From positions 1 to 46,516 of the forward strand of contig JACQES010000106.1 in assembly GCA_016200495.1 (NCBI GenBank): DNA of 46,516 bases, read 5' to 3'. Under the pieces are notes generated by a model. It searched no databases. It was not told the DNA's origin and saw only the letters and a list, made by a program, of their open reading frames with translations. Numbering within the stretch: the first letter of the stretch is position 1; each line of letters begins with the position of its first letter. Shown piece by piece: positions 5,019-46,390 of the stretch. Origin of the DNA: Gemmatimonadota bacterium. GTDB taxonomy: Bacteria > Gemmatimonadota > Gemmatimonadetes > Gemmatimonadales > Gemmatimonadaceae. The translations under genes were made by a program, and so were the position numbers.

Positions 5019-5682
5019 GATTCCCGAACCCGTAGCGGATCCCCACGCGCGTGGACCACTGCGTCCCCGCGCCGCTGAAGCCGCCGCCCGCGAAGATGCT
5101 CGTGTACTCCTGCACCACCTCGAACTGGAAGATGTTGCTCGTCGCGAAGGCGACGCCGAATCCCGCCGACGTGGTGAACACGGTGCGGTCGGGCGCGATG
5201 GATGCGCCGTTGGCGTGCGCGTCCGAGAGCCGCAGCCCGCCGATCGCGAGCTCGGCCACCGGCCACGTGCCGCGCCCTGATCCGCCGGACCGGTACGCCA
5301 GCTGGTAGTGCTGGAACGACGCCGAGGCCTGGCACGTCGTGGGGCAGGCGCCGAGCGCCGTCGTGCTCACCACCATCGCCGGGTTGCTCCACGTGACCGT
5401 GGCGCCCAGCGTGACCCCCGAGCTCATCACCTTGTCGATGGACACGCGGTAGCCCATCACGCTGTTCACGTTCCACCCCGCGTTGCGCGAATCGTCGCGG
5501 AAGCTCGTCGCGTTGAGGAACGACACTCCGCCGCCGATGAAGTTGCCCGGCTCGGTGCTGTACGTGGGAAGCGAGAGGATCTGCGCCGGCAGCAGGCGCG
5601 GCAGGAACGCCAGGACAAGGAGGGCGATCGGACGGTGCACGCGAGCGGGCTCCGATGGGCGGGAAGGGGCCCGGCGCCGCAT
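5011..5682 (-). CDS. Outer-membrane beta-barrel-like protein
   Basis: About 223 residues from the ATG at 5682. An upstream in-frame ATG at 5715 would add 11 residues and place an unusually long head before the signal. The start at 5682 leaves a basic segment, a hydrophobic core (IALLVLAFLPRLLPAQ) and a cleavage site before ILSLPTY. The mature part is rich in Gly, Ser and aromatic residues in alternating patterns (FIGGGVSFLNA, VTLGATVTWSN, WSTRVGIRYGFGN), typical of a small outer-membrane barrel of 8-10 strands. One Cys pair (ACPTTCQA) could form a disulfide. It heads the ggt-ABC-kelch operon. The specific function is unknown; a porin-like or structural role is an inference. Confidence 0.7.
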   Translation of the reverse strand: MRRRAPSRPSEPARVHRPIALLVLAFLPRLLPAQILSLPTYSTEPGNFIGGGVSFLNATSFRDDSRNAGWNVNSVMGYRVSIDKVMSSGVTLGATVTWSNPAMVVSTTALGACPTTCQASASFQHYQLAYRSGGSGRGTWPVAELAIGGLRLSDAHANGASIAPDRTVFTTSAGFGVAFATSNIFQFEVVQEYTSIFAGGGFSGAGTQWSTRVGIRYGFGNRD

Positions 5683-5815
5683 CGCCCGTGGCGACGTGGG
5701 GGGCGTGCGTGGCACGCCTCGAGGGCCTCCGGTAACTTACCCGCACGGTCGTGGCCATCACAGGCACGGCGCCCTCCCCGTCGCCTGCCGCGCGCGCACC
5801 CTGAGATCCGACGCC
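5683..5815. promoter_or_regulatory. Divergent intergenic region with a short palindrome
   Basis: This gap separates the minus-strand barrel operon from the plus-strand murQ operon. It contains GGTAACTTACC (5731-5741), a perfect five-base inverted repeat around one base. Read in either direction it provides a TAnnnT hexamer (TAACTT or TAAGTT), so it could be a shared -10 region or a small operator. No convincing -35 box was found, so this is a weak call. Confidence 0.25.
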
Positions 5816-6748
5816 GTGCCTCCCGCGCTCGATCCCCGCATCACCGAGCACCGCAATCCGCGCACCGCGGGCATCGACCTCGCGTCGCCGCTCGAGATCG
5901 TGGACCTCATGAACGCCGAGGATGCGCGCGTGGCCGCCGCCGTCGCCACGCAGCGCGAGCCGGTGGCGCGAGTCATCACGCTGGTCGAAGCGGCCTTCCG
6001 CGCCGGCGGTCGGCTCTTCTACGCGGGCGCGGGCACGAGCGGTCGCTTGGGCGTCCTCGACGCGAGCGAGTGCCCGCCCACGTTCGGCGTCGAGCCGACC
6101 ATGGTGCAAGGCATCATCGCCGGCGGCCTGCCCGCGCTCACGCGCTCGCAGGAAGGCGCCGAGGATCGCCCCGAAGATGGCGCCGCCGCGATCGACGCCG
6201 CCGGGCTGAACGCGCACGACGTGCTCGTCGGCATCGCCGCCAGCGGCACCACCCCCTTCGTCCGCGGCGCGCTCGCGCGCGCACGCGCCCTGGGTGCCAG
6301 GACGGCCATCCTCGCCTGCACGCCGCCGCCCGCGGACCTCGTCGCCGCGGTGGACGTCGCGATCGTTCCTGTCACGGGCCCCGAAGTCGTCACCGGCTCC
6401 ACGCGCCTCAAGGCGGGCACGGCCACCAAGCTCGTGCTCAACATGATCACGACGGGCGCCATGATCCGCGTCGGCAAGACCTTCGGCAACCTGATGGTGG
6501 ACCTCAAGGCGTCGAACGCCAAGCTGACCGACCGCAGCGAGCGCATCGTGATGGAGGTCTGCGCGCTCGACCGCGATGGCGCGCGGGCCCTGCTCGCGCG
6601 TGCTGGCGGCCTCGTCAAGCGCGCCATCGTCATGCACGCGCTCGCGCTCGATGCGGCGCAGGCCGACGACGCGCTCGCCAGGGCGGGCGGCGTCGTGCGC
6701 CGCGCCACCGGGCAGGCGCCGCCCCCGGTGGCGCCCGAGCGGGCGTGA
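5816..6748 (+). CDS. murQ: N-acetylmuramic acid 6-phosphate etherase
   Basis: A 310-residue SIS-fold enzyme that removes D-lactate from MurNAc-6-phosphate to give GlcNAc-6-phosphate in cytoplasmic cell-wall recycling. Nearly the full family pattern is visible: TEHRNPRTAGID at the start, YAGAGTSGRLGVLDASECPPTFG (residues around 65-90, containing the conserved catalytic Glu), IIAGG, EGAEDRPEDG with the second conserved Glu, GIAASGTTPFV, NMITTGAMIRVGKTFGNLMV and NAKLTDRSERI. The frame stays open upstream, but homology begins at the GTG at 5816, which was chosen. The stop overlaps the GTG of anmK (GTGA), so the pair is translationally coupled. The product of AnmK is the substrate of MurQ, which explains the linkage. 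Confidence 0.96.
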   Translation: MPPALDPRITEHRNPRTAGIDLASPLEIVDLMNAEDARVAAAVATQREPVARVITLVEAAFRAGGRLFYAGAGTSGRLGVLDASECPPTFGVEPTMVQGIIAGGLPALTRSQEGAEDRPEDGAAAIDAAGLNAHDVLVGIAASGTTPFVRGALARARALGARTAILACTPPPADLVAAVDVAIVPVTGPEVVTGSTRLKAGTATKLVLNMITTGAMIRVGKTFGNLMVDLKASNAKLTDRSERIVMEVCALDRDGARALLARAGGLVKRAIVMHALALDAAQADDALARAGGVVRRATGQAPPPVAPERA

Positions 6749-7878
6749 GCGGCCCCGTGAAGTCGCTCATGATCGGCCTGATGTCGGGCACCTCGCTCGA
6801 CGGCATCAGCGCCGCCGTCGTGCGCTTCAGCGAGCCGCCGCTCGCCGCCCAGCTCGTCGGCTACGTGCATCGCCCGTACTCGGCCGCCGAACGCGCCGAA
6901 CTCGAACACGCCATGGCCGGTCGCGCCACGATGGCCGAGCTCACGCGCCTCGACTTCACGCTCGGCGAGCGCCTCGCGCAGGCCGCCATCACCGCCATCG
7001 CCGAGGCCGGCGTCGCGCGCGCCGACGTGGGCGCCATCTGCTCGCACGGGCAGACGCTCTGGCACGAGCCGCGCGTCGCCACCTGGCAGGCGGGCAACGC
7101 GGCCGTCATCGCCGAGCGCGTCGGCGTGGATGTCATCAGCGACTTCCGCGTGCGAGACATGGCCGCGGGCGGCGAGGGCGCGCCGCTCGTCCCCATCGCC
7201 GACGCACTGCTCTTCAGCGGCACGGACTGGCGCGCGCTGCTCAACCTGGGCGGCATGGCCAACTTCACCGTCGTGCCTCCCGGTGGCGCGCTCGAGGGGG
7301 TGCGCGCCATGGATACGGGGCCCGGCTGCGCCATCATCGACCTGGTCGCGCGTCGCGCGGCGCCCGCGCTCCCCTACGACACCGACGGCGCCCTCGCCCG
7401 CGCCGGCACCGCCGTCGAGCCCGTCGTGCGTGCGCGCCTCGCCGACCCGTGGTTCGCGCTCGAGCCACCGAAGACCACGGGTCGCGAACGGTTCGGCGCC
7501 GGCTACGCCGAGCAACTCTGGACCGACTGCATGGCCGCGCAGCCCGGTTGCACCCCGGCCGACGTCGTCGCCAGCGCGGTCGCCATCACCGCGCGGTCCA
7601 TCGCCCACGCGCTCGATCGGTTCGTGGCCGAGCCGGTGTCCGAGGTCGTCGCCTCAGGCGGTGGGGCCAGGAACCCCGCCCTCATGGACGCGCTCGCCGC
7701 CGCGATCGCCCCGCGCCGCCTCGTGCCCTTCGACACCCTCTTCTTCGAGGGCGAAGCCAAGGAAGCGGTCGCGTTCGCGCTCATGGGCTGGCTCCACCTG
7801 CAGCGCCGTCCCGGCAACGTCCCCGGCGCCACCGGCGCGCGCGGCCCACGCATCCTCGGCACCCATACCCCCGCATGA
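6745..7878 (+). CDS. anmK: Anhydro-N-acetylmuramic acid kinase
   Basis: A 377-residue ASKHA-fold kinase that opens the 1,6-anhydro ring of anhydro-MurNAc while phosphorylating it, giving MurNAc-6-phosphate. The N-terminal MIGLMSGTSLDGISAA is the family's ATP-binding signature. Also present are ICSHGQTLWHEP, WQAGNAAVIAE, SDFRVRDMAAGGEGAPLVP with the catalytic Asp region, LNLGGMANFT, DTGPGCAIID, VASGGGARNP and the C-terminal GEAKEAVAFALMGW. The length is normal for the family. The GTG start at 6745 overlaps the murQ stop, and the TGA at the end overlaps the ATG of the next gene. It acts in the cytoplasm directly before MurQ. Confidence 0.96.
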   Translation: MSGPVKSLMIGLMSGTSLDGISAAVVRFSEPPLAAQLVGYVHRPYSAAERAELEHAMAGRATMAELTRLDFTLGERLAQAAITAIAEAGVARADVGAICSHGQTLWHEPRVATWQAGNAAVIAERVGVDVISDFRVRDMAAGGEGAPLVPIADALLFSGTDWRALLNLGGMANFTVVPPGGALEGVRAMDTGPGCAIIDLVARRAAPALPYDTDGALARAGTAVEPVVRARLADPWFALEPPKTTGRERFGAGYAEQLWTDCMAAQPGCTPADVVASAVAITARSIAHALDRFVAEPVSEVVASGGGARNPALMDALAAAIAPRRLVPFDTLFFEGEAKEAVAFALMGWLHLQRRPGNVPGATGARGPRILGTHTPA

Positions 7879-9344
7879 ACGTCCAGCTCGCCGAACTCCT
7901 CGTCCCCGCCATTCCGTGGCGCGAGAAGGAGGGCTTTGCCCCAGCCAAGGCGCTGGTGGACAAGGCCCTCGCGCTCGGCGTCGGCGGCTTCCTCATCGAG
8001 GGCGGCGAGCCCGAGGCGCTCCGCACGCTCACGCGCGACCTGCGCAAGCGGAGCAAGACGCCCCTGCTGATCGCGAGCGACATGGAGCGCGGCGCGGGGC
8101 AGCAGGTCACGGGCGCCACCGGCCTGCCCCCGCTCGCCGCGCTCGCATCGCTCGGTGACGCCGACGCGATCCGCCGCGCCGCGCGCCTCACCGCCAAGGA
8201 AGCGCGCACCCTCGGCATCAATTGGTTGCTCGCCCCCGTCGCCGACCTCGACATCTCGCCCGAGAACCCGATCGTCGGCACGCGCTCGGCCGGCGCCGAT
8301 CCCGCGGTGGTCGCGCAGATCGTGCGCACCTGGATCGAGGCGTGCCAGAGCGAGGGGGTCCTCGCGACCGCGAAGCACTTTCCCGGGCACGGCCGCGCGC
8401 TCACCGACTCGCACCTCATGCTCCCGCGCGTGGACGCCACCGAGGACGAGCTGCGCGAGACCGACCTGCTCCCTTTCCGCGCCGCGATGGACGCGGGGGT
8501 CGCCGCGCTCATGACGGCGCACGTGGCGTATCCGCTGCTCGACCCGAGCGGCGCCCCCGCCACCTGCTCCAAGGACCTGATCGCGGGCATGCTTCGCACC
8601 GCCTTCGGCTTCGACAACCTCCTCGTGAGCGACGCGCTCGGCATGGCCGGCGTGCTGGAAGGAGCCACCGAGGGTGAGGCCGCCGTGATGGCTGCCACGG
8701 CCGGGTGTGACCTGCTGCTCGCCCCGCAGGACCTCGACGGGACGCTCGCGGCGCTCACCGCCGCGCTCGACGAGCACGTGATCGACGGCGCCGCGGTGCA
8801 GCGCGCGCTCCGCCGCCGGCGGAAGTGGGCGCAGTGGGCGTCGTCACCCGACGACTTCCGCAAGCCCAGCACCGCCGACATCCAGTGGGGGATGCAACTC
8901 ACCGACCGCGTCATCCACATCGGCCGCGGCATGCCGCCGCTCGTGCGCGCGCCGCTCGAGATCGCCGTCGTGGACGACGATGCCGACGCCGCCACGCGCC
9001 CGAGCCGCGAGCCGCTCTTCGAGTCGCTGCGCGCGGCCGGCGTGCAGGCACGGCAGGTCGAGGCGCCGACGCCGAGCGCGCGCTCGACCTTCGTGATCGC
9101 GCTCTACGGCGAGGTGCGCGCGGGGAAGGGGCGCACCGGCTACACCGAGGCCACGCTCCAGCGCGTGGACCAGTTGAGCCTCCTCGCGCGCAAGAGCAAC
9201 CGCGAGGCGATGATCTTCCAGTTCGGCGACCCGCGCTGGATGCGCAGCATCCCCGGCGACCTGGCCGTGGCGTGCGCGTGGGGCGGGGAAGCGGGGATGC
9301 AGGCGGCGGCAGCGCGCTGGCTCGTGCTGCGTCGCGGTCGCTGA
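7875..9344 (+). CDS. nagZ: Glycoside hydrolase family 3 beta-N-acetylhexosaminidase (NagZ-like)
   Basis: 489 residues. The GH3 barrel shows LIASDMERGAGQ, the KHFPGHG motif starting at Lys167 followed by TDSH (the His/Asp general acid pair of NagZ-type enzymes) and SDALGM with Asp253 as the expected nucleophile. An additional C-terminal part of about 150 residues resembles the second alpha/beta domain of longer GH3 enzymes of the Bacillus NagZ kind. There is no signal peptide, so it is probably cytoplasmic. The known family role is cutting GlcNAc from GlcNAc-anhydroMurNAc(-peptides), which delivers the AnmK substrate. The ATG overlaps the anmK stop (ATGA). The symbol rests on motif and context; a general beta-hexosaminidase is the alternative. 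Confidence 0.88.
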   Translation: MNVQLAELLVPAIPWREKEGFAPAKALVDKALALGVGGFLIEGGEPEALRTLTRDLRKRSKTPLLIASDMERGAGQQVTGATGLPPLAALASLGDADAIRRAARLTAKEARTLGINWLLAPVADLDISPENPIVGTRSAGADPAVVAQIVRTWIEACQSEGVLATAKHFPGHGRALTDSHLMLPRVDATEDELRETDLLPFRAAMDAGVAALMTAHVAYPLLDPSGAPATCSKDLIAGMLRTAFGFDNLLVSDALGMAGVLEGATEGEAAVMAATAGCDLLLAPQDLDGTLAALTAALDEHVIDGAAVQRALRRRRKWAQWASSPDDFRKPSTADIQWGMQLTDRVIHIGRGMPPLVRAPLEIAVVDDDADAATRPSREPLFESLRAAGVQARQVEAPTPSARSTFVIALYGEVRAGKGRTGYTEATLQRVDQLSLLARKSNREAMIFQFGDPRWMRSIPGDLAVACAWGGEAGMQAAAARWLVLRRGR

Positions 9345-9372
9345 CACGCGGCATCGCCCACGTCACCCCGTC

Positions 9373-9388
9373 GCCGCGAATTCGCGGC
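9373..9388. terminator. Possible bidirectional terminator hairpin between nagZ and the FHA-protease gene
   Basis: GCCGCGAATTCGCGGC is a perfect 16-bp palindrome in the 56-bp gap between two convergent genes. It can form a six-pair GC stem on either transcript. There is no T tract, so it could be a stall or Rho-assisted site, or simply chance in a GC-rich gap. Confidence 0.35.
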
Positions 9389-9400
9389 GCCACGCGCTGA

Positions 9401-10834
9401 CTACCGGGCCAACTCCGCGTTGAGCCGCGACGCGGGCACCGCGTACACGATGCGCCCCTGCGCCTCGGTCGGCCCGCCGTACACCACCCCCACCACGTAA
9501 CCGCGCGCGTCGAATACGGGGCTCCCGCTCGATCCGTGCGTCGCGTACGCGTCGATCTGGGTCAGTCGGTCGAGGATCTTGCTCACCGTGCCCGGCACCA
9601 GCGACGCGCTCGCGCGGATCTTGAGTCCCGTTCCCTCCTGCGCGGCATCCGTCCCGAGCGGGAAGCCGATGAGCGCCACCGGGCCGCCGACTTTCACGTC
9701 CTCGCCCGCGGCCGCCACCCCCGCCACCACCGGGAACGGCCCCGGCCGGTCGATCTGCAGCACCGCGAGGTCGTCCTCCCCCTCGTTGGTGCGCAGCAGG
9801 TGGGCCGGCAGCCAGTTGGTCGTCTCGTTGAACAGCACCGCGATCCGCGTCGGCGAGTTCATCGCGCCGTCGCGCACCGCGTGCCGGTTGGTCACGATGA
9901 TCCCCTTCTCGTTCACGCAGAACCCGGTCGCCGCCGAGCGCGACCCGTCGGGCATCTCCACGATCAGCAGCGCCACCGCCTTGCCGCTCTTCTCGTTGAT
10001 GCTCGAGAAGTCCACCTTGGCCGCGTCCATCACGAGCCGGCCGCGGCGCTGCTGGTCCTCCAGGTCCTTCTTGAGTTTTTCGACTTCCTCGCTCGACCCG
10101 CCCTTGTCGAGGCGGTCGCGCAGCTGCTGGTTCTCCGCGCCGAGGCGGGCCAGGATCGTATCGAGGCCGCCCTGCTTCCCCTTCTGTGCCGCCATCGCCT
10201 GGGTCATCGCCGCCGTCTGCGCGTCGAGCTGCGCCTGCATCAGCGCCACGACCTTGTCGGCCTGCGTGCGGCCGTACGCGTAGGCACCGATCACGGCCAG
10301 TCCCAGCACGCCGACCACCGCCACCATCGTGCGCTGCAACTTGGCCGTGCTCTTCTCGACGGCCGCCTCGATCCGCATCTGCGTCGAACGGGGCGCCGGC
10401 GCGCCGGCCTGCTCCCCGCGGGAGGGCGTCGCGCTTCCACCCGCCGCGGCGGCTCCGCTCGCGCCCGGCGCCTTGATCCCGCTCGACACGCGCGTCGCCG
10501 GGGCCGGCGCATCGGGGCGCGCACGCCCCGTCCCGCCGATCACCGCCTGCGGACCATGCTCGCCGAAGCTCACGACGTCGCCGTCATAGAGTTCGGCGGC
10601 GTCCTCGAGGCGCGTGCCGTTGACGAAGGTGCCGTTGGTGCTCCCCACGTCGCGCAGCACCACGCGGCTCCCGATCACCACGATCTCGGCGTGACGCCCC
10701 GAGACGTCGATGTCCTGCTGCGCGTCGAAGCGGAGGTCGCAGTCCGGCGCGCGCCCGACGGAGATCATCGCCTGGCCGAACGTCAGCGTGCGCCCGGCGA
10801 GCGCACCCGTGCGCACCGTCAGCGCCAGGGACAC
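9401..10834 (-). CDS. Membrane-anchored FHA domain-trypsin-like serine protease
   Basis: 477 residues. An N-terminal FHA phosphothreonine-binding domain (about 20-95) has the key VGR (26-28), SGRHAE (45-50) and STNGT (65-69) motifs. A Pro/Ala/Gly linker, one membrane helix (about 170-187) and a charged coiled coil (about 190-270) follow. The rest is a trypsin-fold protease with the triad His318 (TNRHAV), Asp355 (EDDLAVLQ) and Ser436 (HGSSGSPV), as in DegP/HtrA-type enzymes but without a PDZ domain. The topology implies a cytoplasmic FHA sensor coupled to a periplasmic protease. It is the last gene of the kinase/phosphatase operon, one base after the phosphatase stop, so it is probably controlled by threonine phosphorylation from that operon. 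The start is GTG. Confidence 0.9.
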   Translation of the reverse strand: MSLALTVRTGALAGRTLTFGQAMISVGRAPDCDLRFDAQQDIDVSGRHAEIVVIGSRVVLRDVGSTNGTFVNGTRLEDAAELYDGDVVSFGEHGPQAVIGGTGRARPDAPAPATRVSSGIKAPGASGAAAAGGSATPSRGEQAGAPAPRSTQMRIEAAVEKSTAKLQRTMVAVVGVLGLAVIGAYAYGRTQADKVVALMQAQLDAQTAAMTQAMAAQKGKQGGLDTILARLGAENQQLRDRLDKGGSSEEVEKLKKDLEDQQRRGRLVMDAAKVDFSSINEKSGKAVALLIVEMPDGSRSAATGFCVNEKGIIVTNRHAVRDGAMNSPTRIAVLFNETTNWLPAHLLRTNEGEDDLAVLQIDRPGPFPVVAGVAAAGEDVKVGGPVALIGFPLGTDAAQEGTGLKIRASASLVPGTVSKILDRLTQIDAYATHGSSGSPVFDARGYVVGVVYGGPTEAQGRIVYAVPASRLNAELAR

Positions 10835-10835
10835 G

Positions 10836-12035
10836 CTACCCCTGCCGAAGCTTCGTGAACGCGAGCACCGCGAGCGCGACCACCACCGCCACCGCGGCCC
10901 AGAACATCACGCCACGGCCGCCTTCGCTCGCCGCAGGCTCGGCCGGCAGCTTCTTCATCGCCGGAATGCTCTTCGGGGTCGGCCGGTTGGCCTCCTCCTC
11001 GCTGATCACCGGCATTCCCGTCACCGGTGTCGGCGCCATCGAGTCCACGCGCACCGTTGGCGTCGGCACCTCGGCCGTCATCGTCACCGGATCCTCCACG
11101 GCGCCGAGCGGCATGGTGGCCCGCGCATCGCCGCTGAACCGGTAGTTGCGGTGCCCCACCGCATCGCCGTCCGCCGCGTGCTCCAGCCCCTCGCCCTCGA
11201 AGCGGGCCGCCACCACCGTGATGTTGTCCGGGCCCCCCGCCTCGTTCGCGAGGTCGATCAGCTTCTTGCAGAGCTGCACCAGGTCGGTGTGCGCCACCAC
11301 CGACTCGGCGATCTGCTCCGTCCGGACCTGGCCACTCAGGCCGTCCGAGCACAGCACGAGCGTGTCGCCCTTCCGCACCTGCTGCACCGTGAGGTCCACC
11401 TTGATGTTCGCCTCGGGCCCCAGCGCCTGCAGGATGATGTTGCGGCGCTCGCTCATCTCCGCCTCTTCGGGCGTCAGCTCGCCGGCCTCGACGAGCTTCT
11501 GGATCAGCGACTGGTCCTTGGTGATCTGCCGGGCCACCCCGTCCCGGATCAGGTAGGCGCGGGAATCCCCCACCTGCGCCACGTACAGCGAGTCCCCCAG
11601 GATCCCGGCGATCGTCGCCGTCGTGCCCATCCCGCGGTGTTCCGGATGCTCGAGCGCGTACTGGTGGATCTTCTGGTTGGCCGCCTCCGTGGCCCCCTTG
11701 ATCGCGGCGGCGAACCCGTCGGCTGACCGTTCCGGGAGGCTGATCCACCGCTTCCGCATCTCGGCCAGCACCACCTCGGTGGCCATGGCGGAGGCGATCT
11801 CGCCGGCGGCCGCGCCCCCCATCCCGTCGGCGACCATGAACATCGTGCCATGGTGGCCGAGCACGTGCCGGCGCACCTCGGGCTGCAACGTGGCGTTGTC
11901 CGTCGTCAGGTCCGCGACGACGAACGCATCCTCGTTGTGCTCGCGCGTGCGCCCGACATCGGTCCGTCCGAAGACGTTGACGATGATGTCGTTCGCCGAG
12001 TCGCTGCCGGGCGTGGGGCCGTCCGGGAGGGTCAC
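10836..12035 (-). CDS. PP2C-family Ser/Thr protein phosphatase with C-terminal membrane anchor
   Basis: A 399-residue metal-dependent phosphatase. PPM motifs are in order: GRTREHNEDAF near the N-terminus, FMVADGMGGAAAGE with the metal-binding Asp/Gly, GMGTTAT, AQVGDSRAYL, LCSDGLSG and GGPDNITVV, which carries the final metal-binding Asp. The catalytic domain ends near 265. A Pro/Thr-rich linker follows, and one membrane helix (FWAAVAVVVALAVLAFT) lies at the very C-terminus, so the catalytic domain faces the cytoplasm. Such phosphatases reverse the action of PknB-type kinases, and the adjacent kinase gene supports that pairing. The start is GTG. It lies 81 bp downstream of the kinase stop and one base before the protease start. 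Confidence 0.93.
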   Translation of the reverse strand: MTLPDGPTPGSDSANDIIVNVFGRTDVGRTREHNEDAFVVADLTTDNATLQPEVRRHVLGHHGTMFMVADGMGGAAAGEIASAMATEVVLAEMRKRWISLPERSADGFAAAIKGATEAANQKIHQYALEHPEHRGMGTTATIAGILGDSLYVAQVGDSRAYLIRDGVARQITKDQSLIQKLVEAGELTPEEAEMSERRNIILQALGPEANIKVDLTVQQVRKGDTLVLCSDGLSGQVRTEQIAESVVAHTDLVQLCKKLIDLANEAGGPDNITVVAARFEGEGLEHAADGDAVGHRNYRFSGDARATMPLGAVEDPVTMTAEVPTPTVRVDSMAPTPVTGMPVISEEEANRPTPKSIPAMKKLPAEPAASEGGRGVMFWAAVAVVVALAVLAFTKLRQG

Positions 12036-12116
12036 GAGGTGGGGCGGGTACGGGGGTGCGGGTGGCCTAGCGGTCGCAAAGGTGCCACCGGGCAGGGCGG
12101 GGGGGAAGGACGTGGG

Positions 12117-13761
<1,645 letters not shown>

Positions 13762-37648: not shown

Positions 37649-37894
37649 AGGGGCCGACGAGGCCTGACGCAGCGGACACGACCGCGTCCGCGGACGCTCC
37701 CCCTGGTAGTTCCACCGTTGCAGCCGATACCGGGGAAACGTGGGGGTTGATGTCAGGCACGACCCTACCCCCCACCGCCAGCCGACCCCGTGCCCCCGGC
37801 CACCCCTCGCGCGTCAATCTGTAGCGTTTCTCGACAGCGCAGGCCCTCGCAGGGGATCATCGCCGGCTCCCCGCCGCACGTCCGCCGCCACTCC

Positions 37895-40800
37895 ATGCAC
37901 TCAGGCTCCGCACAACGCGCGACACCCCTCGGCGCCGCCCGTCGGTGGATCATCGAATCGGTGCTCTTTGCCGCCGTGGCCGCCTTGGGCTACGCGATGG
38001 TGCAGTCGGCGGGCGCCGCGGCGATCTGGTGGCCGCCCTCGGGCGCGGCGATCGCGTGGTTGTTCAGTCGCAAGCGACGCGAGTGGGGGCAGGTGCTGGT
38101 GCTCGCCTTCCTCATCCGACTGGGCGTCGCCGCGACGTTGGGGCGCTCCACGGGACTCTCGGCGCTCGTCATCGCGGGGTCGCTCGCGTCGAACGTGGTC
38201 GCGGCCCTCGTGCTGCAGCGCCTGCTCGCAGGGCGCACGCGGCTCGCCGAACCGTACGACGTGATCTCCCTGGCGGGCGTGGCGCTCTTCGTCGCGGGGC
38301 CGCTGGCAGCGGCGTGGGCGGCGCTCTATCGCGCCGCGCTCGCGGGGGGCGACCTGGTCTGGTGGTCGCCCGTGCACTGGGCGATGGGCGACGCCGTGGG
38401 CGTGGTGCTCGCGGGCCCCTTCCTGCTCACGCTCAACGACGCGGTCGCGTGGTGGAAGCGGAGCTCGCTCGCGTGCCGTCTCGAGCTGCTGGCGCTCCTC
38501 CTCGTCACCTTCGTGGGTGCGTGGCAGGCGCTCTACTCGCCGCTCGACGAGAGCGAGTTCCGTCGCCCGCTGCTCGGCCTCCTGCTGCTGCCGCCGGTGT
38601 GGGCGGCGCTCCGCATCGGGATCTTCGCCGCATCGTGGACGCAGGTGATCATCGGCGTGATCGGGGCGCGTGGGCTGATCGTGGGCGCCGGGGTGATCAT
38701 GGCGCTGCCGTCGTCGCACGACCGGCACGTGCTGCTCTTCCAGGTCTACGAGCTGGTGCTGGCGCTCGCATCGCTGCTCATCGCCGCGGCGTTCGAGAGC
38801 CAGCGCGCGGCGCTCGCCAAGGTGCGCGAGAGCGAGGCGCAGTTCCGGCGGCTGGTCGACGACGCGCCGGTGGCGCTGCTGGTGGAGCACACGGCGCGCG
38901 CGGAGCGGCCGTACCTCAACCCGCGGCTCGTGGCGTTGCTGGGGCCCGCGCCCGCCGACGGCGACCTCGAGGCGTGGTGGGACCGCACGGGGGTGATGCC
39001 CGCGGTGCGCGCGGCGCTCGACGAAGCGGCCGAACACTTCGGCACGCAGTCGTATGCGGGAGTCACGACGGACCTGCTGGGGAGCGACGGCGCGACGCGC
39101 CACGTCGAACTCAACGTCTCGATCGCGGGTGACCGGCGCATCACCGCCTTCACCGACCTGACCGAGCGCACGCGCCTCGAGGCCGAACTGCGCCAGGCGA
39201 CCAAGCTCGAGGCGCTCGGCACGCTCGCGGGCGGCGTGGCGCACGACTTCAACAACCTATTGGGCGCGGTGCTGGGGAACCTCGCCCTGGCGCAGCGTTC
39301 GCTGGGGCAGCCGTCGGAAGCGCTCGCGCTGCTGCGCGAGGCGGAACGGGCGGGACAGCGCGCGACGGCGGTGGCGCGGCAGATCCTCACCTTCAGCCGA
39401 CGCGAGAACGAGGCGCGGCACGTGGTGACGCTCGGGCCGGTGCTGCACGAGGCGGTGTCGATCCTGCGCGGGGCGGCGGGACCGGGGGTGCGCGTGGAGG
39501 TGCACGAGGGGAACGACGTGCCGACGGTGTGGGGCGACACGACGCAGCTGCACCAGCTGATCGTGAACCTTGGCACCAACGCGCTGCACGCGATGCGCAC
39601 CACGGGGGGCACGCTCACGGTGGCGCTCGACGCGGTGACGGTGACGTCGGCCGACCTGCGGCTCGGGCGCGGGCAGCGCGAGGGACGCCACGCGCGGCTC
39701 GTGGTGCGCGACACGGGGCACGGCATGCCGCCCGAAACGCTCGAGCGCGTGTTCGAGCCGTTCTTCACGACCAAGGCGCTCGGCGAGGGCACGGGACTCG
39801 GGCTCGCAGTGGTGCACGGCGTCGTGCGCGGCCACGATGGCACGATCATGGCGACGAGCGCGCCGGGGGCGGGCGCGTCGTTCGAGGTGCTGATTCCCGC
39901 GGCGGTCACGCCGGTGTCGGTGCCGATCATCACCGAGGCCGAGGCGCCGACGGCGCGCGGGCTCCGCGTGCTGGTCGTGGACGACGAGCATTCACTGGCG
40001 CGCCTGGCCGAGCGGGCGCTCCAGCGCGCGGAGTGCACCGTGACGTCGCTGACCAGCGCGGGGGACGCGCTCGCGCTGCTCACCGCGCACGCCGACGAGT
40101 TCGACGTGCTCGTGACGGACCTGACGATGCCGGAGATGTCGGGGCTCGAGCTGGTGGCCGAGATGCGGAAGGTGCGCGTGGACCTGCCGGTGCTGCTCGT
40201 GTCGGGTTACTCGGTGATGCTCACCGAGGAGCAGCTCGAGGTCGAGGGGATCGCGGCGGTGCTCTCCAAGCCGTACTCGCCCGACGAGATTTCCCGCGTC
40301 CGCGACACGCGCGGCCTGGCCTTCCTGGTGACCGACATCCGTAGCGATTCCCCTGACTCGACGACCCAGCGCTGGGTCGTGGAGACGATCCTGTTCACGG
40401 CGGTCGCCGCGATGGGCTATGCGCTCGTCACGCGGCCGGGCGAGCCTGCCGTGTGGTGGCCCGCCACGGGCGCCGCCGTGTCGTGGTTCTTCAGCCGCTC
40501 GCGGCGCGACTGGCCGATCGTGTTCGCGCTTGCGGTGACGATGCGGCTGCTGATCGTGACCACGATCGGGAACCGCGATCCGCTCGCGATCGTGACCGTC
40601 GTGGGGTCGGTGGGCACCAACCTGGTCGCGGCGTACGTGCTGCAGAGGGTGCTCGCCGGGCGCCGTCGCCTGGCTGAACCGTACGACGTGGTGCGCTTCA
40701 CCGCCGTCGCCGTGTTCGTCGCCGGGGCGCTGTCGGCCGCGTTCGCGGCCGTGTACCGCATGTTCGAGGGCGGGGAGTCGCTGCGCTGGTGGTCGTCGCT

Positions 40801-42646
40801 CCACTGGATCATGGGCGACGCGCTCGCCGTCGTGGTGCTCGGTCCGTTCCTGCTCACGTTGCCGTACGCCGGCCAGTGGTGGCGTCGCGCGAGGGCCCGC
40901 CGGCGGTTCGAGGTGGTGGCGCTGTGCGCGCTGGTGCTGGGCATGATCTGGACCGTGAGCGTCGCGACCCCCGACGTGGCCGAGGTGCGCCGGCCGATCC
41001 TCGGCCTCGTGCTGTTGCCCATGCTCTGGGCGGCGCTGCGCGTGGGAAGCTTCGCCGTGACGTGGCTGCTCCTGATCGTGACGTTCGTCGCGGGGCGCGG
41101 CCTCGTGGCAGGCTCGGGGGTGTTCGCGGCGCTCCCGGGGCCGCACGAGCGGCACGTGCTCCTGTTCCAGACGTACTCGCTCGTGCTCGCGTTCGCGACG
41201 CAGCTGGTGGCCGCGGCGTTCGAGAGCCAGCGCTCGGCGCTCGCGCTGGCGAGACGCACGGAATCCAAGTTCCGCCGCCTGGTAGACGACGCCCCGGTGG
41301 CGCTGCTGGTGGAGCCCGTGCTGGGGGGCGAGCCGCCCTACCTCAACCCGCGCCTGGTGACCCTGCTGGGCGCGCTGCCCGAGCCGGGAGGGCTCGAGGC
41401 GTGGTGGGAGCGCGCGGGGGCGACCCGCGCGGTGCGCAGCGCGCTGGGCTCGACCGCCCTGCAACCGGGCGCGCATGCGCCCGTGGCCGCAGACCTGCGC
41501 GACGCGACGGGGGCCACGCGCCACCTCGAGCTGCACGTCTCGCTCGCCGGCGACAGCCGGATCACGGCGTTCACCGACCTCACCGACCGGCTCCGCCTCG
41601 AGGGCGAGCTGCGGCAGGCCAACAAGCTCGAGGCGCTCGGCACGCTCGCGGGCGGCGTGGCGCACGACTTCAACAACCTGCTCGCGATCGTGATCGGGAA
41701 CCTGGCGCACGCGCAGAAGAGCCTCGACCGGCCGGTCGAGGCGCGGGCACTGCTCGCCGAGGCGGAGCGCGCGAGCCAGCACGCGGCGGGCGTGGCGCGA
41801 CAGATCCTGACCTTCAGCCGGCGCGACAGCGAGACGCGGCAGCTGGTGCGCCTCGCCTCGGTGATGCAGGACGCGGTGACGCTGCTGCGCGCCTCGGCTC
41901 CCACGCGCGTGCCCGTGGAGATGCACGTGGCGCGCGACCTGCCACCGGTGCTCGGCGACGCGACCCAGCTGCACCAGGTGATCGTGAACCTCGGCACGAA
42001 CGCGATCCACGCCATGCGCGAACAGGGCGGAACGCTGCAGATGTCGCTCGACGCGCTCGAACTCACCGAGGCCGACGTGCGCGCGGGGCGCGGCCAGCGG
42101 CAGGGGCGCCACGTGCGCCTCGTGGTGCGCGACTCGGGGCACGGGATTCCTCCGGCGACGCTCGAGCGGATCTTCGAGCCGTTCTTCACCACCAAGCCGC
42201 TGGGCGAGGGGACCGGGCTCGGGCTCGCGGTGGTGCACGGCGTGGTGCGCGGGCTGGGCGGCACGATCACGGCGTCGAGCACGGTGGGGGTGGGCACCAC
42301 GTTCGAGGTGCTCGTGCCGGCCACCGAATCGCCCGAGGCGACGCCGGTGCCGTCCGTGCGGGTGCGACCAACGGCGCGAGGGATGCGCGTGCTGATCGCG
42401 GACGACGAGCGCGCGCTGGTCCGGATTGCCGAGCGCACGCTCACGCGCGCGGAGTGCCGCGTGGTGGCGGTGACGAGCTCGGCCGAGGCGCTCGAGAGGC
42501 TGCGCGCCGACCCGGACGGGTTCGACGTGCTGGTGACGGACCTGACGATGCCCGGGATGGACGGCCTCGAACTCGCGGCGGCGATGCGCGAGGTCAAGGC
42601 GGACCTCAAGGTGCTGCTCGTGTCCGGCTACTCGGCCATGCTCTAG
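37895..42646 (+). CDS. Tandemly duplicated MASE1-PAS hybrid histidine kinase in one frame
   Basis: 1583 residues from the ATG at 37895; the frame is open to a GTG at 37790. Two complete copies of one architecture follow each other at a fixed 807-residue period: an eight-helix MASE1-like sensor (IWWPPSGAAIAWLFSR, VWWPATGAAVSWFFSR), a PAS-like domain (FRRLVDDAPVALLVE twice), HisKA (GGVAHDFNNLL; His450, His1257), HATPase (NLGTNA, DTGHG or DSGHG, GEGTGLGLAVVHG) and REC (Asp742, Asp1549). No stop separates them; a GTG at 40328 could start the second copy on its own. Copy two ends at a TAG (42644-42646), before the REC Lys. The same frame then continues to 42745 with LPKPYMPDDLV, so the TAG truncates the receiver. 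The signal sensed is unknown. Confidence 0.9.
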   Translation: MHSGSAQRATPLGAARRWIIESVLFAAVAALGYAMVQSAGAAAIWWPPSGAAIAWLFSRKRREWGQVLVLAFLIRLGVAATLGRSTGLSALVIAGSLASNVVAALVLQRLLAGRTRLAEPYDVISLAGVALFVAGPLAAAWAALYRAALAGGDLVWWSPVHWAMGDAVGVVLAGPFLLTLNDAVAWWKRSSLACRLELLALLLVTFVGAWQALYSPLDESEFRRPLLGLLLLPPVWAALRIGIFAASWTQVIIGVIGARGLIVGAGVIMALPSSHDRHVLLFQVYELVLALASLLIAAAFESQRAALAKVRESEAQFRRLVDDAPVALLVEHTARAERPYLNPRLVALLGPAPADGDLEAWWDRTGVMPAVRAALDEAAEHFGTQSYAGVTTDLLGSDGATRHVELNVSIAGDRRITAFTDLTERTRLEAELRQATKLEALGTLAGGVAHDFNNLLGAVLGNLALAQRSLGQPSEALALLREAERAGQRATAVARQILTFSRRENEARHVVTLGPVLHEAVSILRGAAGPGVRVEVHEGNDVPTVWGDTTQLHQLIVNLGTNALHAMRTTGGTLTVALDAVTVTSADLRLGRGQREGRHARLVVRDTGHGMPPETLERVFEPFFTTKALGEGTGLGLAVVHGVVRGHDGTIMATSAPGAGASFEVLIPAAVTPVSVPIITEAEAPTARGLRVLVVDDEHSLARLAERALQRAECTVTSLTSAGDALALLTAHADEFDVLVTDLTMPEMSGLELVAEMRKVRVDLPVLLVSGYSVMLTEEQLEVEGIAAVLSKPYSPDEISRVRDTRGLAFLVTDIRSDSPDSTTQRWVVETILFTAVAAMGYALVTRPGEPAVWWPATGAAVSWFFSRSRRDWPIVFALAVTMRLLIVTTIGNRDPLAIVTVVGSVGTNLVAAYVLQRVLAGRRRLAEPYDVVRFTAVAVFVAGALSAAFAAVYRMFEGGESLRWWSSLHWIMGDALAVVVLGPFLLTLPYAGQWWRRARARRRFEVVALCALVLGMIWTVSVATPDVAEVRRPILGLVLLPMLWAALRVGSFAVTWLLLIVTFVAGRGLVAGSGVFAALPGPHERHVLLFQTYSLVLAFATQLVAAAFESQRSALALARRTESKFRRLVDDAPVALLVEPVLGGEPPYLNPRLVTLLGALPEPGGLEAWWERAGATRAVRSALGSTALQPGAHAPVAADLRDATGATRHLELHVSLAGDSRITAFTDLTDRLRLEGELRQANKLEALGTLAGGVAHDFNNLLAIVIGNLAHAQKSLDRPVEARALLAEAERASQHAAGVARQILTFSRRDSETRQLVRLASVMQDAVTLLRASAPTRVPVEMHVARDLPPVLGDATQLHQVIVNLGTNAIHAMREQGGTLQMSLDALELTEADVRAGRGQRQGRHVRLVVRDSGHGIPPATLERIFEPFFTTKPLGEGTGLGLAVVHGVVRGLGGTITASSTVGVGTTFEVLVPATESPEATPVPSVRVRPTARGMRVLIADDERALVRIAERTLTRAECRVVAVTSSAEALERLRADPDGFDVLVTDLTMPGMDGLELAAAMREVKADLKVLLVSGYSAML

Positions 42647-42818
42647 CGCGAGAAGCTCGACGCCGGCGGGATCACGGCGGTGCTGCCCAAGCCGTACATG
42701 CCGGACGACCTGGTGCGCGCGGTGGCGAAGCTCAGCAACAACTGAGGCGCGGGGCCGCGCGCGCGTCGCTTGCGGCGCGATGCGTGGTGGGAGGCGCGGC
42801 CGTGCGACGTGCCGCGCG

Positions 42819-43250
42819 CTACGCCGCGCCCTGGTTGCCGCTCAAGTTGGCGCAGCCCGCGACCGGTCCCGTGCCGGCGGTGCCGGCGCGGATCACGACA
42901 TGGAACGGGCCGTCGTCGGGCAGGTCGAGGATGACCTCCTCGGTGGCCTTGCCGCGGCCGTTCTCGTCGAGCCGGGCGATGGCAGGCGCCACCACGGGCA
43001 CCTGCTCGCGCTCGTCGCCGCAGCGGCCGCGCCAGAGCTGGAAGGCGTGCTCCGCGCCCGGCACGCCGCGCGCGAGGCGCAGCACGAGGAAGGCGCGGCC
43101 GGGGACGTCCGGGAAGAGCTCGGCGATGCCCCGCACGGAGGCCGAGGCGGTGGCGGGCTCGATCGGGCCGACGAGGATCTGCAGGCTATCGGTGCGCGCG
43201 CTGAAGAGCGCGAATTGGAGCAGGGTGACGGCGTAGGTCAGTGGCAACAT
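42819..43250 (-). CDS. Small secreted protein, unknown function
   Basis: 143 residues from the ATG at 43250, which has GGAGG five bases upstream; a longer frame to 43355 lacks an RBS. A hydrophobic N-terminus (MLPLTYAVTLLQFALFSA) suggests export or anchoring. The remainder is beta-rich with two Cys (GRCGDE, AGCANL) that could form a disulfide and a C-terminal FHVVIRAGTAGTGPV segment that recalls secreted beta-sandwich proteins. No family was recognised. It is convergent with the hybrid kinase and divergent from tldD. Confidence 0.6.
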   Translation of the reverse strand: MLPLTYAVTLLQFALFSARTDSLQILVGPIEPATASASVRGIAELFPDVPGRAFLVLRLARGVPGAEHAFQLWRGRCGDEREQVPVVAPAIARLDENGRGKATEEVILDLPDDGPFHVVIRAGTAGTGPVAGCANLSGNQGAA

Positions 43251-43588
43251 GCTGGCCTCCCGGCGCGTGCGCCGGCGTACGGGTGGTGCTGCTGGCGGGG
43301 TGATGCGGCGCAAGCGCCGACGAGCGGTGGTGCGACCAACGGGTGGGCGCGACATTGCGCTCGCGCCCTCACCCGGAATACGCCGCAGGGGAACCGGTGT
43401 TAGCAGGTTCCACGCTGTGCTCGTGCTAAGCGCGCACAGCGGAGTGCTCCGGATGGACGTAGCTTGGTGACGGCGCGCACCCTGGCCTCACGCGGGGACG
43501 GTGGAACCCGGGAACCCGGGAACCCGCCTCCCGATGGCGCGCCGCCTGATCGCTGCGCCATACCCACCCCCCACCCGTCTCGTCACCG
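43251..43588. other. Divergent spacer upstream of tldD with a 3 x 8-bp repeat
   Basis: No supported gene. GGAACCCG is repeated three times head to tail at 43503-43526. Further left, GCTGTGC and GCACAGC form an inverted repeat within the region 43415-43445, overlapping a TTAGCA/TGCTAA pair. Either could be an operator of tldD or of the small secreted protein gene, but no promoter pair was clear. Confidence 0.35.
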
Positions 43589-45178
43589 ATGACCACCACG
43601 CGCCGAGAGTTCGTCGCGACTTCCGCTGCCGTGGCAGCGGGGCTCGCCCTGGGACCGTCGCTGCTCAGGGCCGCGCCACCCGACCTGGCCGCGCCGGGCA
43701 CCGATCCCTTCGAGGAGGATCTCGCGAACGAGGCGCTCGGCGCGGCGCGCGACGCGGGGGCGAGCTACACGGACGTGCGCATCGGGCGTTACCGGCGGCA
43801 GTTCGTGGCGGCGCGCGAGCGGCAGGTGCAGGCGGTGAGCGACACGGAGTCGTACGGCATCGGCGTGCGCGTGCTGGTGCAAGGGAGCTGGGGGTTCGCG
43901 GCGACGAGCGAGCTGTCGAAGGCCGGGGTGGTGGCCGCGGCGCGCGAGGCGGTGGTGATCGCGAAGGCCGCGCGCGCCGTACAGCGACGGCCGGTGGAAC
44001 TGGCGCCCGTGAGCCCGATCAAGGGGACGTGGATGACGCCGGTCAAGCGCGACCCGATCGACGTGCCGATCGAGGACAAGGTGGCGCTGCTGCTCGCGGC
44101 CAACGAGGCGGCGCTCAAGGTGCCCAAGGTGCGCTTCGCGAACAGCGGCATGGCGCTGCTGCGCGAGGTGAAGACGCTGGCGACGAGCGAGGGGACGCTC
44201 ACGACGCAGACGTTCATCCGCGTGGGCCCGACGTTCAGCGCGACGGCGATCGGTGGCGGCGAGTTCCAGCAGTACAACGAGGAGCTGGCGCCGCGCGGCT
44301 CGGGGTGGGAATACATCGAGTCGCTCGACATGCCGGGAAACGCGGCGCGCTGGGCGGGGCTCGCGGCCGAGAAGCTCGGCGCCAAGTCGGTGGAGCCGGG
44401 GCGGTATGACCTGATCCTCGACCCGACCAACCTCTGGCTCACGATCCACGAGTCGGTCGGGCACCCGACCGAGCTGGACCGCGCGACGGGGCAGGAGGCG
44501 AACTACGCGGGGACGAGCTTCGTCGCGCCGCCGGAGAAGGTACTGGGCAAGCTCAAGTACGGCACGCCGCTCATGACGATCCGGGCCGACCGGCTGCAGG
44601 CGGAGTCGCTCGCGCGGTGCGCGTGGGACGACGAGGGGGTGCCGGCCGAGCAGTGGAACGTGATCGAGAAGGGGATCTTCAAGGATTACCAGACGACGCG
44701 CGAGCAGGCGGCGTGGATCTCGAAGCTCACGGGAGTGAAGAAGTCGCACGGCTGCTCGTTCGCCGACTCGTGGAGCTCGGTGCAGTTCCAGCGGATGCCG
44801 AACATCTCGCTCCTGCCGGGCGACAAGGACATCGGGATGGACGACATCGTGGCGGCGACGGATCGCGGGATCATCGTGAAGAACCGCGGGTCGTGGAGCA
44901 TCGACAACCAGCGCTACAACTTCCAGTTCTCGGGGCAGGTGTTCTACGAGGTGAAGGGCGGCAAGATCACGGGGATGCTCAAGGACGTGGCGTACCAGAG
45001 CACGACGCCGGTGTTCTGGAACGCGATGGACATGATCGGCGGGAAGAAGTCGTACTGGCTGGGCGGCACCTTTACGGACGGCAAGGGGGAACCCGGCCAG
45101 GTGAACTCGGTGAGTCACGGCTGTCCGCCGGCGCGCTTCCGCGGCGTGAACATCCTGAACACGGGGAGGGCGTCGTGA
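43589..45178 (+). CDS. tldD: TldD-like metalloprotease subunit with Tat signal
   Basis: A 529-residue member of the TldD/PmbA family of zinc peptidases, which act as TldD-TldE heterodimers on unfolded peptides and on modified peptide antibiotics. The N-terminus, TTTRREFVATSAAVAAGLAL, is a twin-arginine signal (TRREFV), so this copy is exported, unlike E. coli TldD. The zinc motif HESVGH begins at His287. Later come NYAGTSFV, the loop SIDNQRYNFQFSG and HGCPPARF, which carries a conserved Cys. The stop overlaps the ATG of tldE (TGATG), so the two subunits are translationally coupled. Confidence 0.92.
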   Translation: MTTTRREFVATSAAVAAGLALGPSLLRAAPPDLAAPGTDPFEEDLANEALGAARDAGASYTDVRIGRYRRQFVAARERQVQAVSDTESYGIGVRVLVQGSWGFAATSELSKAGVVAAAREAVVIAKAARAVQRRPVELAPVSPIKGTWMTPVKRDPIDVPIEDKVALLLAANEAALKVPKVRFANSGMALLREVKTLATSEGTLTTQTFIRVGPTFSATAIGGGEFQQYNEELAPRGSGWEYIESLDMPGNAARWAGLAAEKLGAKSVEPGRYDLILDPTNLWLTIHESVGHPTELDRATGQEANYAGTSFVAPPEKVLGKLKYGTPLMTIRADRLQAESLARCAWDDEGVPAEQWNVIEKGIFKDYQTTREQAAWISKLTGVKKSHGCSFADSWSSVQFQRMPNISLLPGDKDIGMDDIVAATDRGIIVKNRGSWSIDNQRYNFQFSGQVFYEVKGGKITGMLKDVAYQSTTPVFWNAMDMIGGKKSYWLGGTFTDGKGEPGQVNSVSHGCPPARFRGVNILNTGRAS

Positions 45179-46390
45179 TGCCGCGCTCCCGGATGCATGA
45201 CGCGGCCCACGCCGCGCTGGCGCCGCACTCGCTGTTCGCGGCGGGCCGGCCGGAGATGACGGAAGCGGAGGCGCGCGCGCTGACGCAGCGCGTGCTGGCG
45301 ATGTCCTCGGCGGACGGCGTGCGCGTGAACGTCAACTCCAGCTGGCAGGGGAACACGCGCTTCGCCACGAGCGAGATCACGACGTCGGGCGGGATCACCG
45401 ACACGACGGTGAGCGTGAGCGTGACGCTGGGGAAGAAGCGCGCGTCGGCGAGCACCAACGTGCTCGACGAGGCGTCGCTCCGGCGCACGGTGGCGCTGGC
45501 GGAGACGCTGGCGCGCCTCAGCCCCGACGATGCGGAGCTGATGCCCGAGCTGGGCCCGCAGCAGTACGCCGCGGTGCAGGCCTACAACGACGCAACGGCG
45601 GGGCTCGCGCCGGACCAGCGCGCCAAGGCGGTGCAGGCGCTCATGACCGCCGCGGGCGCGCAAGGCCGTCGCGAGCCGCAACCCGCAGGCGATCGAGCCG
45701 GGGATGTACACGGTGGTCCTCGAGCCGCAGGCGGTGGCCGACATGATTCCCGCGCTTGCGGGGTCGCTCAACGCGCGCCAGGCCGACGAGGGGCGGAGCG
45801 CGTTCAGCAAGAAGGGGGGCGGCACGCGCGTGGGCGAGCAGATCGCCGACCCGCGCGTGACGATCCTGTCGGATCCGGCGGACCCGGAGCTGCTCACGAC
45901 GCCGTTCGACGGCGAGGGGCTGCCGGTGCCGCGCCGCGTGTGGATCGAGAACGGCGTGCTCAAGGAGCTGTCGTACTCGCGCTACTGGGCCGACAAGCAG
46001 GGGAAGGCGCCCACGGGCGGCGGCGGGGGCGGTGGTGGCGGTGGCGGCTTCGGGGTTCCCGGCGGCCTCAAGATGGTCGGCGGATCGAAGAGCACGGCCG
46101 AGCTGATCGCGGGGACGGAGAAGGGGATTCTCGTCACGCACATGTTCTACATCCGGCCGCTCGACCAGCGCACGGTGCTGCTCACCGGGCTCACGCGCGA
46201 CGGGACCTTCCTGATCGAGAAGGGGAAGGTGACCAAGGCGCTCAAGAACTTCCGCTGGAACGAGAGCCCGCTGCTGATGCTCAACCGCGTCGAGGAGATC
46301 GGGCAGGCGGAGCGGACGGCGCGCGGGCAGGTGATGCCGGCGCTCAAGATCAAGGACTTCAACTTCGCGTCGCTGTCGGACGCGGTGTAA
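45178..46390 (+). pseudogene. TldE/PmbA-like subunit with a +1 frameshift
   Basis: The ATG at 45178 overlaps the tldD stop. The first frame encodes LTQRVLAMSSADGVRVNVN, FATSEITTSGGITDTTVSV and LPDD-like family segments up to ALMTAA near 45653. One extra G in the GGG at 45654-45656 then shifts the frame. The continuation ARKAVASRNPQ runs through GMYTVVLEPQAVADMIP, FSKKGGGTRVGEQ, VWIENGVLKELSYSRYWA, a poly-Gly stretch, AELIAGTEKGILVTHMFYIR and NRVEEIG to 46390. Removing one base restores a protein of about 403 residues. TldE normally lacks the zinc site, and here no HExxxH is seen. It has no signal peptide of its own. The shift may be real or an assembly error. Confidence 0.85.

What the first reader, a model, noticed from the sequence alone, without database searches (positions are those of the whole stretch)
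37895..42745. Whole hybrid histidine kinase duplicated in tandem within a single reading frame
Two full MASE1-PAS-HisKA-HATPase-REC units repeat at an exact 807-residue period, with phosphorylatable His450/His1257 and Asp742/Asp1549. No stop separates them. The copies have clearly diverged in the sensor region but much less in the kinase core, so the arrangement is not a trivial assembly repeat. A fused 'double' hybrid kinase could sense two signals and cross-phosphorylate in cis.
Basis: seen in the sequence. Interest (0 to 1): 0.7.

Follow-up and report, generated by a model that had tools for sequence, protein, structure and literature searches.

The report
Two sensor kinase genes run together
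A Gemmatimonadota bacterium has two neighbouring copies of a membrane sensor-kinase gene that read as one long gene because the end of the first copy is missing; both copies have lost the end of their receiver domain, so this looks more like a recent, possibly decaying gene merger than a new kind of sensor.

Summary
The core observation holds. One frame, ATG 37895 to TAG 42646 (1583 aa), carries two MASE1-(PAS)-HisKA-HATPase-REC units at an 807-residue period, with H450/H1257 and D742/D1549 where stated.

The units come from a duplication in this lineage (c1 and c2 are sisters). Copy 2 keeps a GTG start (40328) homologous to the start of a separate kinase gene in the same genus (G001 gene B). 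In G001 two kinases (A, B), probably at the same place, are separate genes. In the fused frame REC1 does not end like a receiver: all 105 comparison tails have V/I/L/M at one helix-5 position, here it is Arg. AlphaFold2 gives a 6-residue helix 5, against 18 in gene B. No other REC-to-MASE1 fusion was found in the order or class.

Best reading: two tandem EspC-like hybrid kinase genes merged when the 3' end of copy 1 was lost, with both receivers damaged. Whether the fusion is real in the cell or a sequence error is unresolved. The architecture (HK1RR1HK2RR2, 'TRTR') is rare but published.

The parts
37895..42646 (+). Fused open reading frame, 1583 codons plus TAG
   Evidence: the stop-to-stop frame also allows an upstream GTG at 37790
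37895..40327 (+). Copy 1 (c1): MASE1-(PAS)-HisKA-HATPase-REC
   Evidence: Pfam; EspC-like end to end
37961..38806 (+). MASE1 domain of copy 1 (residues 23-304)
   Evidence: PF05231, 5.1e-21
39215..39412 (+). HisKA of copy 1, phospho-acceptor His450 at 39242-39244
   Evidence: PF00512, 3.9e-8; HDFNN motif
39533..39901 (+). HATPase_c of copy 1
   Evidence: PF02518, 4e-22
39968..40291 (+). REC1, phospho-acceptor Asp742 at 40118-40120; helix 5 broken at its 3' end
   Evidence: PF00072, 5e-20
40292..40327 (+). Join: end of REC1 that no longer resembles a receiver tail
40328..40331 (+). GTGA: probable original GTG start of copy 2, overlapped by a TGA in the +1 frame
   Evidence: start homologous to G001 gene B; sequence
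40328..42646 (+). Copy 2 (c2): MASE1-(PAS)-HisKA-HATPase-REC, cut by TAG
   Evidence: Pfam
40391..41233 (+). MASE1 domain of copy 2
   Evidence: PF05231, 6.2e-24
41636..41833 (+). HisKA of copy 2, phospho-acceptor His1257 at 41663-41665
   Evidence: PF00512, 3.8e-6
41954..42325 (+). HATPase_c of copy 2
   Evidence: PF02518, 5.1e-24
42389..42643 (+). REC2, phospho-acceptor Asp1549 at 42539-42541; truncated
   Evidence: PF00072 positions 1-80 of 111
42644..42646 (+). In-frame TAG that ends the fused frame inside REC2
42647..42745 (+). Severed end of REC2 with the conserved KPY, up to the original TGA
   Evidence: conserved with G001 gene B

Best explanation
A MASE1-PAS-HisKA-HATPase-REC hybrid kinase gene (EspC-like) was duplicated in tandem in this lineage (supported by the trees). 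The 3' end of copy 1, meaning most of REC helix 5 and the stop codon, was then lost by a small deletion or a frameshift, so its frame now runs straight into copy 2 at copy 2's own GTG start (the joined state is shown in the assembly; the event is inferred). Copy 2 has lost the end of its receiver to a TAG (shown). If translated through, the product is a membrane protein with two intact transmitters and two damaged receivers; it would work like TodS or the EspA/EspC pair, with a His phosphorylating a linked receiver Asp or an outside response regulator (inferred). I judge it a recent merger with partly lost function, perhaps still making copy 2 from its own start, rather than a selected two-signal sensor.
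For: c1 and c2 are sisters with 97-98 support in sensor and kinase trees, G001B next. Copy 2's GTG start matches the start of gene B (VTDIRS/VTDHRS). REC1's tail is outside the range of 94 natural tails and its predicted helix 5 is 6 residues against 18 in gene B. REC2 is cut by TAG while the sequence after it is still recognisably receiver. Copy 2's kinase core evolves faster: 42 against 10 unique residues, chi2 19.7. Tandem MASE1 hybrid kinases are separate genes in G001 and G034, and no REC-to-MASE1 fusion was found in 288 genomes of the order or 394 of the class. The neighbouring second TldD gene is also broken. Tandem duplication plus fusion of hybrid kinases has been reported in Stigmatella (PMC4603909).
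Against: No reads or second genome of the species confirm the join or the TAG. All four catalytic motifs of both transmitters are intact, which decay would erode in time. GC at third positions stays high to the TAG and beyond, as for a working gene. The source of the 30 bases before the GTG could not be traced.
Confidence: 0.52

Rival explanations
1. Artefact: two ordinary tandem hybrid kinase genes that overlap by a few bases. A base-level error in the draft assembly near 40285-40328 joins them, and the TAG is an error or a minority variant.
For: A TGA overlaps copy 2's GTG in the +1 frame (GTGA), like the ATGA overlap of the tandem pair in G034. One-base frame changes near 40298-40304 can give a receiver tail of natural score (best of about 255 tried). 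With 70% GC a shifted frame stays open over 20 codons with probability about 0.68. Three breaks lie within about 5.5 kb near the contig end.
Against: Thirteen other genes (about 17 kb) of the contig align in one frame with relatives, so base errors look rare; needing two independent ones here is unlikely. Most single-base changes do not give a good tail.
Confidence: 0.28
2. Functional double kinase: the fused chain is selected, two MASE1 sensors feed one protein, and phosphate passes in cis between the units, TodS-like, with the cut REC2 leaving a transmitter-receiver-transmitter layout.
For: Both transmitters keep H, N, G1 and G2 motifs. TodS is a transmitter-receiver-transmitter kinase with a His-Asp-His-Asp relay (PMC4321377). 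HK1RR1HK2RR2 proteins exist in 60 species (PMC4558063). The faster change of copy 2's kinase could be specialisation.
Against: REC1, the relay step, has lost helix 5. No relative carries the fusion. No response regulator gene was recognised beside it.
Confidence: 0.17

Closest known systems
EspC of Myxococcus xanthus (NCBIfam NF052574) and its partner EspA
   Same: Each unit aligns with EspC from end to end (copy 1: model 6-775 of 785, E 1.3e-84; copy 2: 7-740, E 4.4e-79). EspA phosphorylates its own receiver and that of EspC (PMC4320627), so two hybrid kinases working as a pair is precedented.
   Different: Scores 285 and 266 are far below the family cut-off of 1200. EspA and EspC are separate proteins; here two copies of one type are in one frame.
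HK1RR1HK2RR2 / 'TRTR' hybrid kinases, including the tandem-fused TRTTRT protein STAUR_6958
   Same: Two transmitters and two receivers in one chain; 90 proteins in 60 species (PMC4558063). [quoted passage not shown]
   Different: Here the whole unit including the membrane sensor is repeated, REC1 lacks most of helix 5 and REC2 is cut by TAG. None was compared by sequence.
TodS / TmoS of Pseudomonas
   Same: Transmitter-receiver-transmitter in one chain with two sensor regions (PMC4321377).
   Different: TodS has no membrane part and its units are not a whole-gene repeat; it has a known partner regulator TodT.
Fungal dual histidine kinases (such as Cryptococcus Tco2)
   Same: Two kinase modules in one protein (PMC4965123).
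   Different: Eukaryotic group of separate origin.

Membership tests
Hybrid histidine kinase (each unit) | HisKA with phospho-acceptor His, HATPase_c with N, G1, G2 boxes, in one chain with REC | tested here: met
   Pfam above cut-off for HisKA, HATPase_c and REC in both copies; motifs invariant in alignment
Hybrid histidine kinase (each unit) | Complete receiver: acceptor Asp and conserved Lys, five helices | tested here: not met
   Copy 1 has Asp and Lys but helix 5 is cut to 6 residues (control); copy 2 has Asp but loses the Lys to TAG
HK1RR1HK2RR2 (TRTR) double hybrid kinase | Two transmitters and two receivers in one open frame | tested here: inconclusive
   One frame with T-R-T and a truncated second R; the join itself is not confirmed by reads
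HK1RR1HK2RR2 (TRTR) double hybrid kinase | A single translated polypeptide | not testable with these tools
   Copy 2 keeps a probable own start GTG; needs protein size
EspC equivalog (NF052574) | Score above the curated cut-off of 1200 bits | tested here: not met
   284.9 and 266.5 bits
EspC-like architecture | MASE1-PAS-HisKA-HATPase-REC in this order over about 785 residues | tested here: met
   End-to-end model alignment, Pfam order; the PAS part only by homology
TodS-type kinase | Soluble PAS-HK-REC-PAS-HK | tested here: not met
   Two MASE1 membrane domains
TodS-type kinase | His-Asp-His-Asp phosphorelay | not testable with these tools
   Needs a phosphotransfer assay

The most novel reading that the evidence does not exclude
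A whole-gene tandem duplication and fusion has made a natural membrane double hybrid kinase in which two MASE1 sensors feed one chain, and loss of both receiver ends has turned self-contained hybrid kinases into a two-input kinase that signals to an outside regulator.
Probability: 0.15. Interest if true: 0.5.

Novelty: new member of a known kind. Interest (0 to 1): 0.27.

Why it matters
If the fusion is real it is a young example of how multi-kinase chains can arise: duplicate, lose the gene boundary, trim the receivers. The probable ancestral start and the severed receiver end are still readable. If it is an error, it shows how easily GC-rich tandem genes can appear fused in draft genomes.

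Tried and rejected
Assembly repeat: rejected, the copies are only 72-77% identical in DNA. Recoded TAG: no support; kinase-like matches elsewhere in this genome show in-frame TGA as well as TAG, so no single reassigned stop is indicated, but this was not tested further. Origin of the 30 nt before the GTG from the leaders of c1 or B or the tails of c2, A or B: no alignment clearly beats shuffles. Partial gene conversion of the sensors, suggested by the identity pattern: not needed, since trees group c1 with c2 in both sensor and kinase and the pattern follows from a faster c2 kinase. A first tail profile with 7 tails was too small and was replaced. A first tree run printed nothing and was repeated. 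The genome-contig scan brought mostly kinases of other phyla; among 137 kinase-bearing frames in the loci then fetched, only the window's own frame (seen in overlapping loci) holds two kinases.

Full report
WHAT IS THERE. The window is contig 233 of a 431-contig draft genome, 86% complete. One frame runs from ATG 37895 to TAG 42646, 1583 codons. Pfam finds two copies each of MASE1, HisKA, HATPase_c and Response_reg. The HDFNN motif sits at residues 450 and 1257, an exact 807-residue period. The copies are 59.5% identical (MASE1 50, PAS region 63, kinase core 68, REC 62) and their DNA is 72-77% identical, so this is a diverged duplication and not an assembly repeat. Third-position GC averages 0.95 and stays high through the join.

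The frame does not run to 42745. A TAG at 42644-42646 ends it inside REC2, just after SGYSAML and before the conserved Lys-Pro. The rest of the receiver lies beyond the stop in the same frame and ends at a TGA (42743-42745). Pfam's REC match in copy 2 covers only positions 1-80 of 111. The PAS domain is not detected in either copy; it is inferred from G001 gene B.

THE JOIN. Copy 2 begins with GTG ACC GAC (VTDIRS) at 40328. Gene B of the same-genus genome G001 begins GTG ACC GAT (VTDHRS), so this GTG is probably copy 2's old start codon. From the REC1 Lys-Pro to that GTG there are 20 codons, the median length of a natural receiver tail, but the sequence is not a receiver tail. At helix-5 position 11 all 105 comparison tails have V, I, L or M, and here it is Arg; the helix-5 score is -8.7 against a minimum of 1.6 among 94 tails. 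AlphaFold2 on REC1 plus the join, with 42 sequences, gives a confident receiver (pLDDT mostly above 90) with helix 5 only 6 residues long, after which confidence falls to about 44. Gene B's receiver, folded with essentially the same set of receivers, has an 18-residue helix 5. So REC1's own end is gone. The origin of the 30 bases before the GTG could not be traced. Copy 1 could instead have ended in another frame: a TGA overlaps the GTG (GTGA), and a one-base frame change near 40298-40304 can give a tail of natural score, though that is the best of about 255 alternatives. A frameshift (real or an error) and a small deletion both remain possible.

RELATIVES. In G001 a 4.8-kb contig carries two such kinases, A and B, as separate genes about 65 nt apart. 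One end of that contig and the start of the contig with the TldD orthologue (92% identical) share a 23-nt repeat, and the gene order after the repeat matches the window. A-B therefore probably sit at the same place; this is an inference, because the repeat occurs more than once. In G034 two adjacent MASE1 hybrid kinases are separate genes with a 4-nt ATGA overlap. G002 has a single kinase beyond the TldD pair. No match runs from REC into MASE1 in any of 288 genomes of the order or 394 of the class (the two sets overlap, and only the best 5-7 candidates per genome were scored). In trees c1 and c2 are sisters (97 for MASE1, 98 for PAS-HK-REC), with G001B next and G001A outside for PAS-HK-REC. 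The duplication is therefore most likely specific to this lineage, and G001 A/B are not one-to-one counterparts of c1/c2. Copy 2's kinase core has changed about four times as much as copy 1's (42 against 10 unique residues, chi2 19.7), while the sensors have changed about equally.

IS THE SEQUENCE RELIABLE? Thirteen genes (about 17 kb) with orthologues in G001 or G002 align in one frame. The exception is the second TldD gene, close to the kinases, which lacks about 223 nt out of frame relative to G001 and G002. So base errors look rare, but three breaks (join, TAG, TldD deletion) lie within about 5.5 kb. That fits local gene decay or a poorly assembled contig end; no reads were available to decide.

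MECHANISM. Each unit resembles Myxococcus EspC end to end, though below that family's cut-off. EspA is reported to phosphorylate its own and EspC's receiver (PMC4320627). A chain with two transmitters could do the same in cis, or work like TodS, a transmitter-receiver-transmitter kinase that uses a His-Asp-His-Asp relay (PMC4321377). Both transmitters here keep their catalytic motifs, but REC1, the relay step, is damaged and REC2 is cut. I therefore favour a recent merger with partly lost function over a selected double sensor. What is shown: the joined frame in the assembly, the TAG, the damaged receiver ends. What is inferred: the event, translation through the join, and any phosphotransfer.

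NOVELTY. HK1RR1HK2RR2 proteins are rare but listed (90 proteins, 60 species; PMC4558063), and tandem duplication plus fusion of hybrid kinases is reported in Stigmatella (STAUR_6958; PMC4603909). That survey lists Gemmatimonadetes among phyla without the related HKRRHK2 type, so the phylum may be new for such chains. This is at most a new member of a known kind.

Noticed in passing
window 45091-46390, gap near 45656-45663: The second TldD/PmbA gene lacks about 223 nt, out of frame, compared with both G001 and G002, so it is split into two frames.
   Followed up: partly
L051 (G002:C16) 9294-12323, minus strand: In G002 the related single kinase, with an extra PAS-like stretch, lies downstream of the TldD pair, not upstream as in the window; the window's contig ends just after TldD2, so a further kinase could lie beyond.
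   Followed up: no
G001 contigs C60 (L050) and C55 (L170), contig ends: A 23-24 nt repeat sits at the ends of both contigs and again inside C55, probably a dispersed repeat that broke the G001 assembly at this locus.
   Followed up: no
window 41636-42325: Copy 2's kinase core evolves about four times faster than copy 1's while keeping its catalytic motifs; relaxed constraint or specialisation.
   Followed up: partly
window 42819-43355, minus strand: A 178-aa minus-strand frame between the kinases and TldD has DNA similarity in G001 (67% over 305 nt) but no Pfam match.
   Followed up: no
L181 (G034:C94), reverse strand 3825-8905: An independent tandem pair of MASE1 hybrid kinases in another genus of the family, separate genes with an ATGA overlap.
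   Followed up: partly
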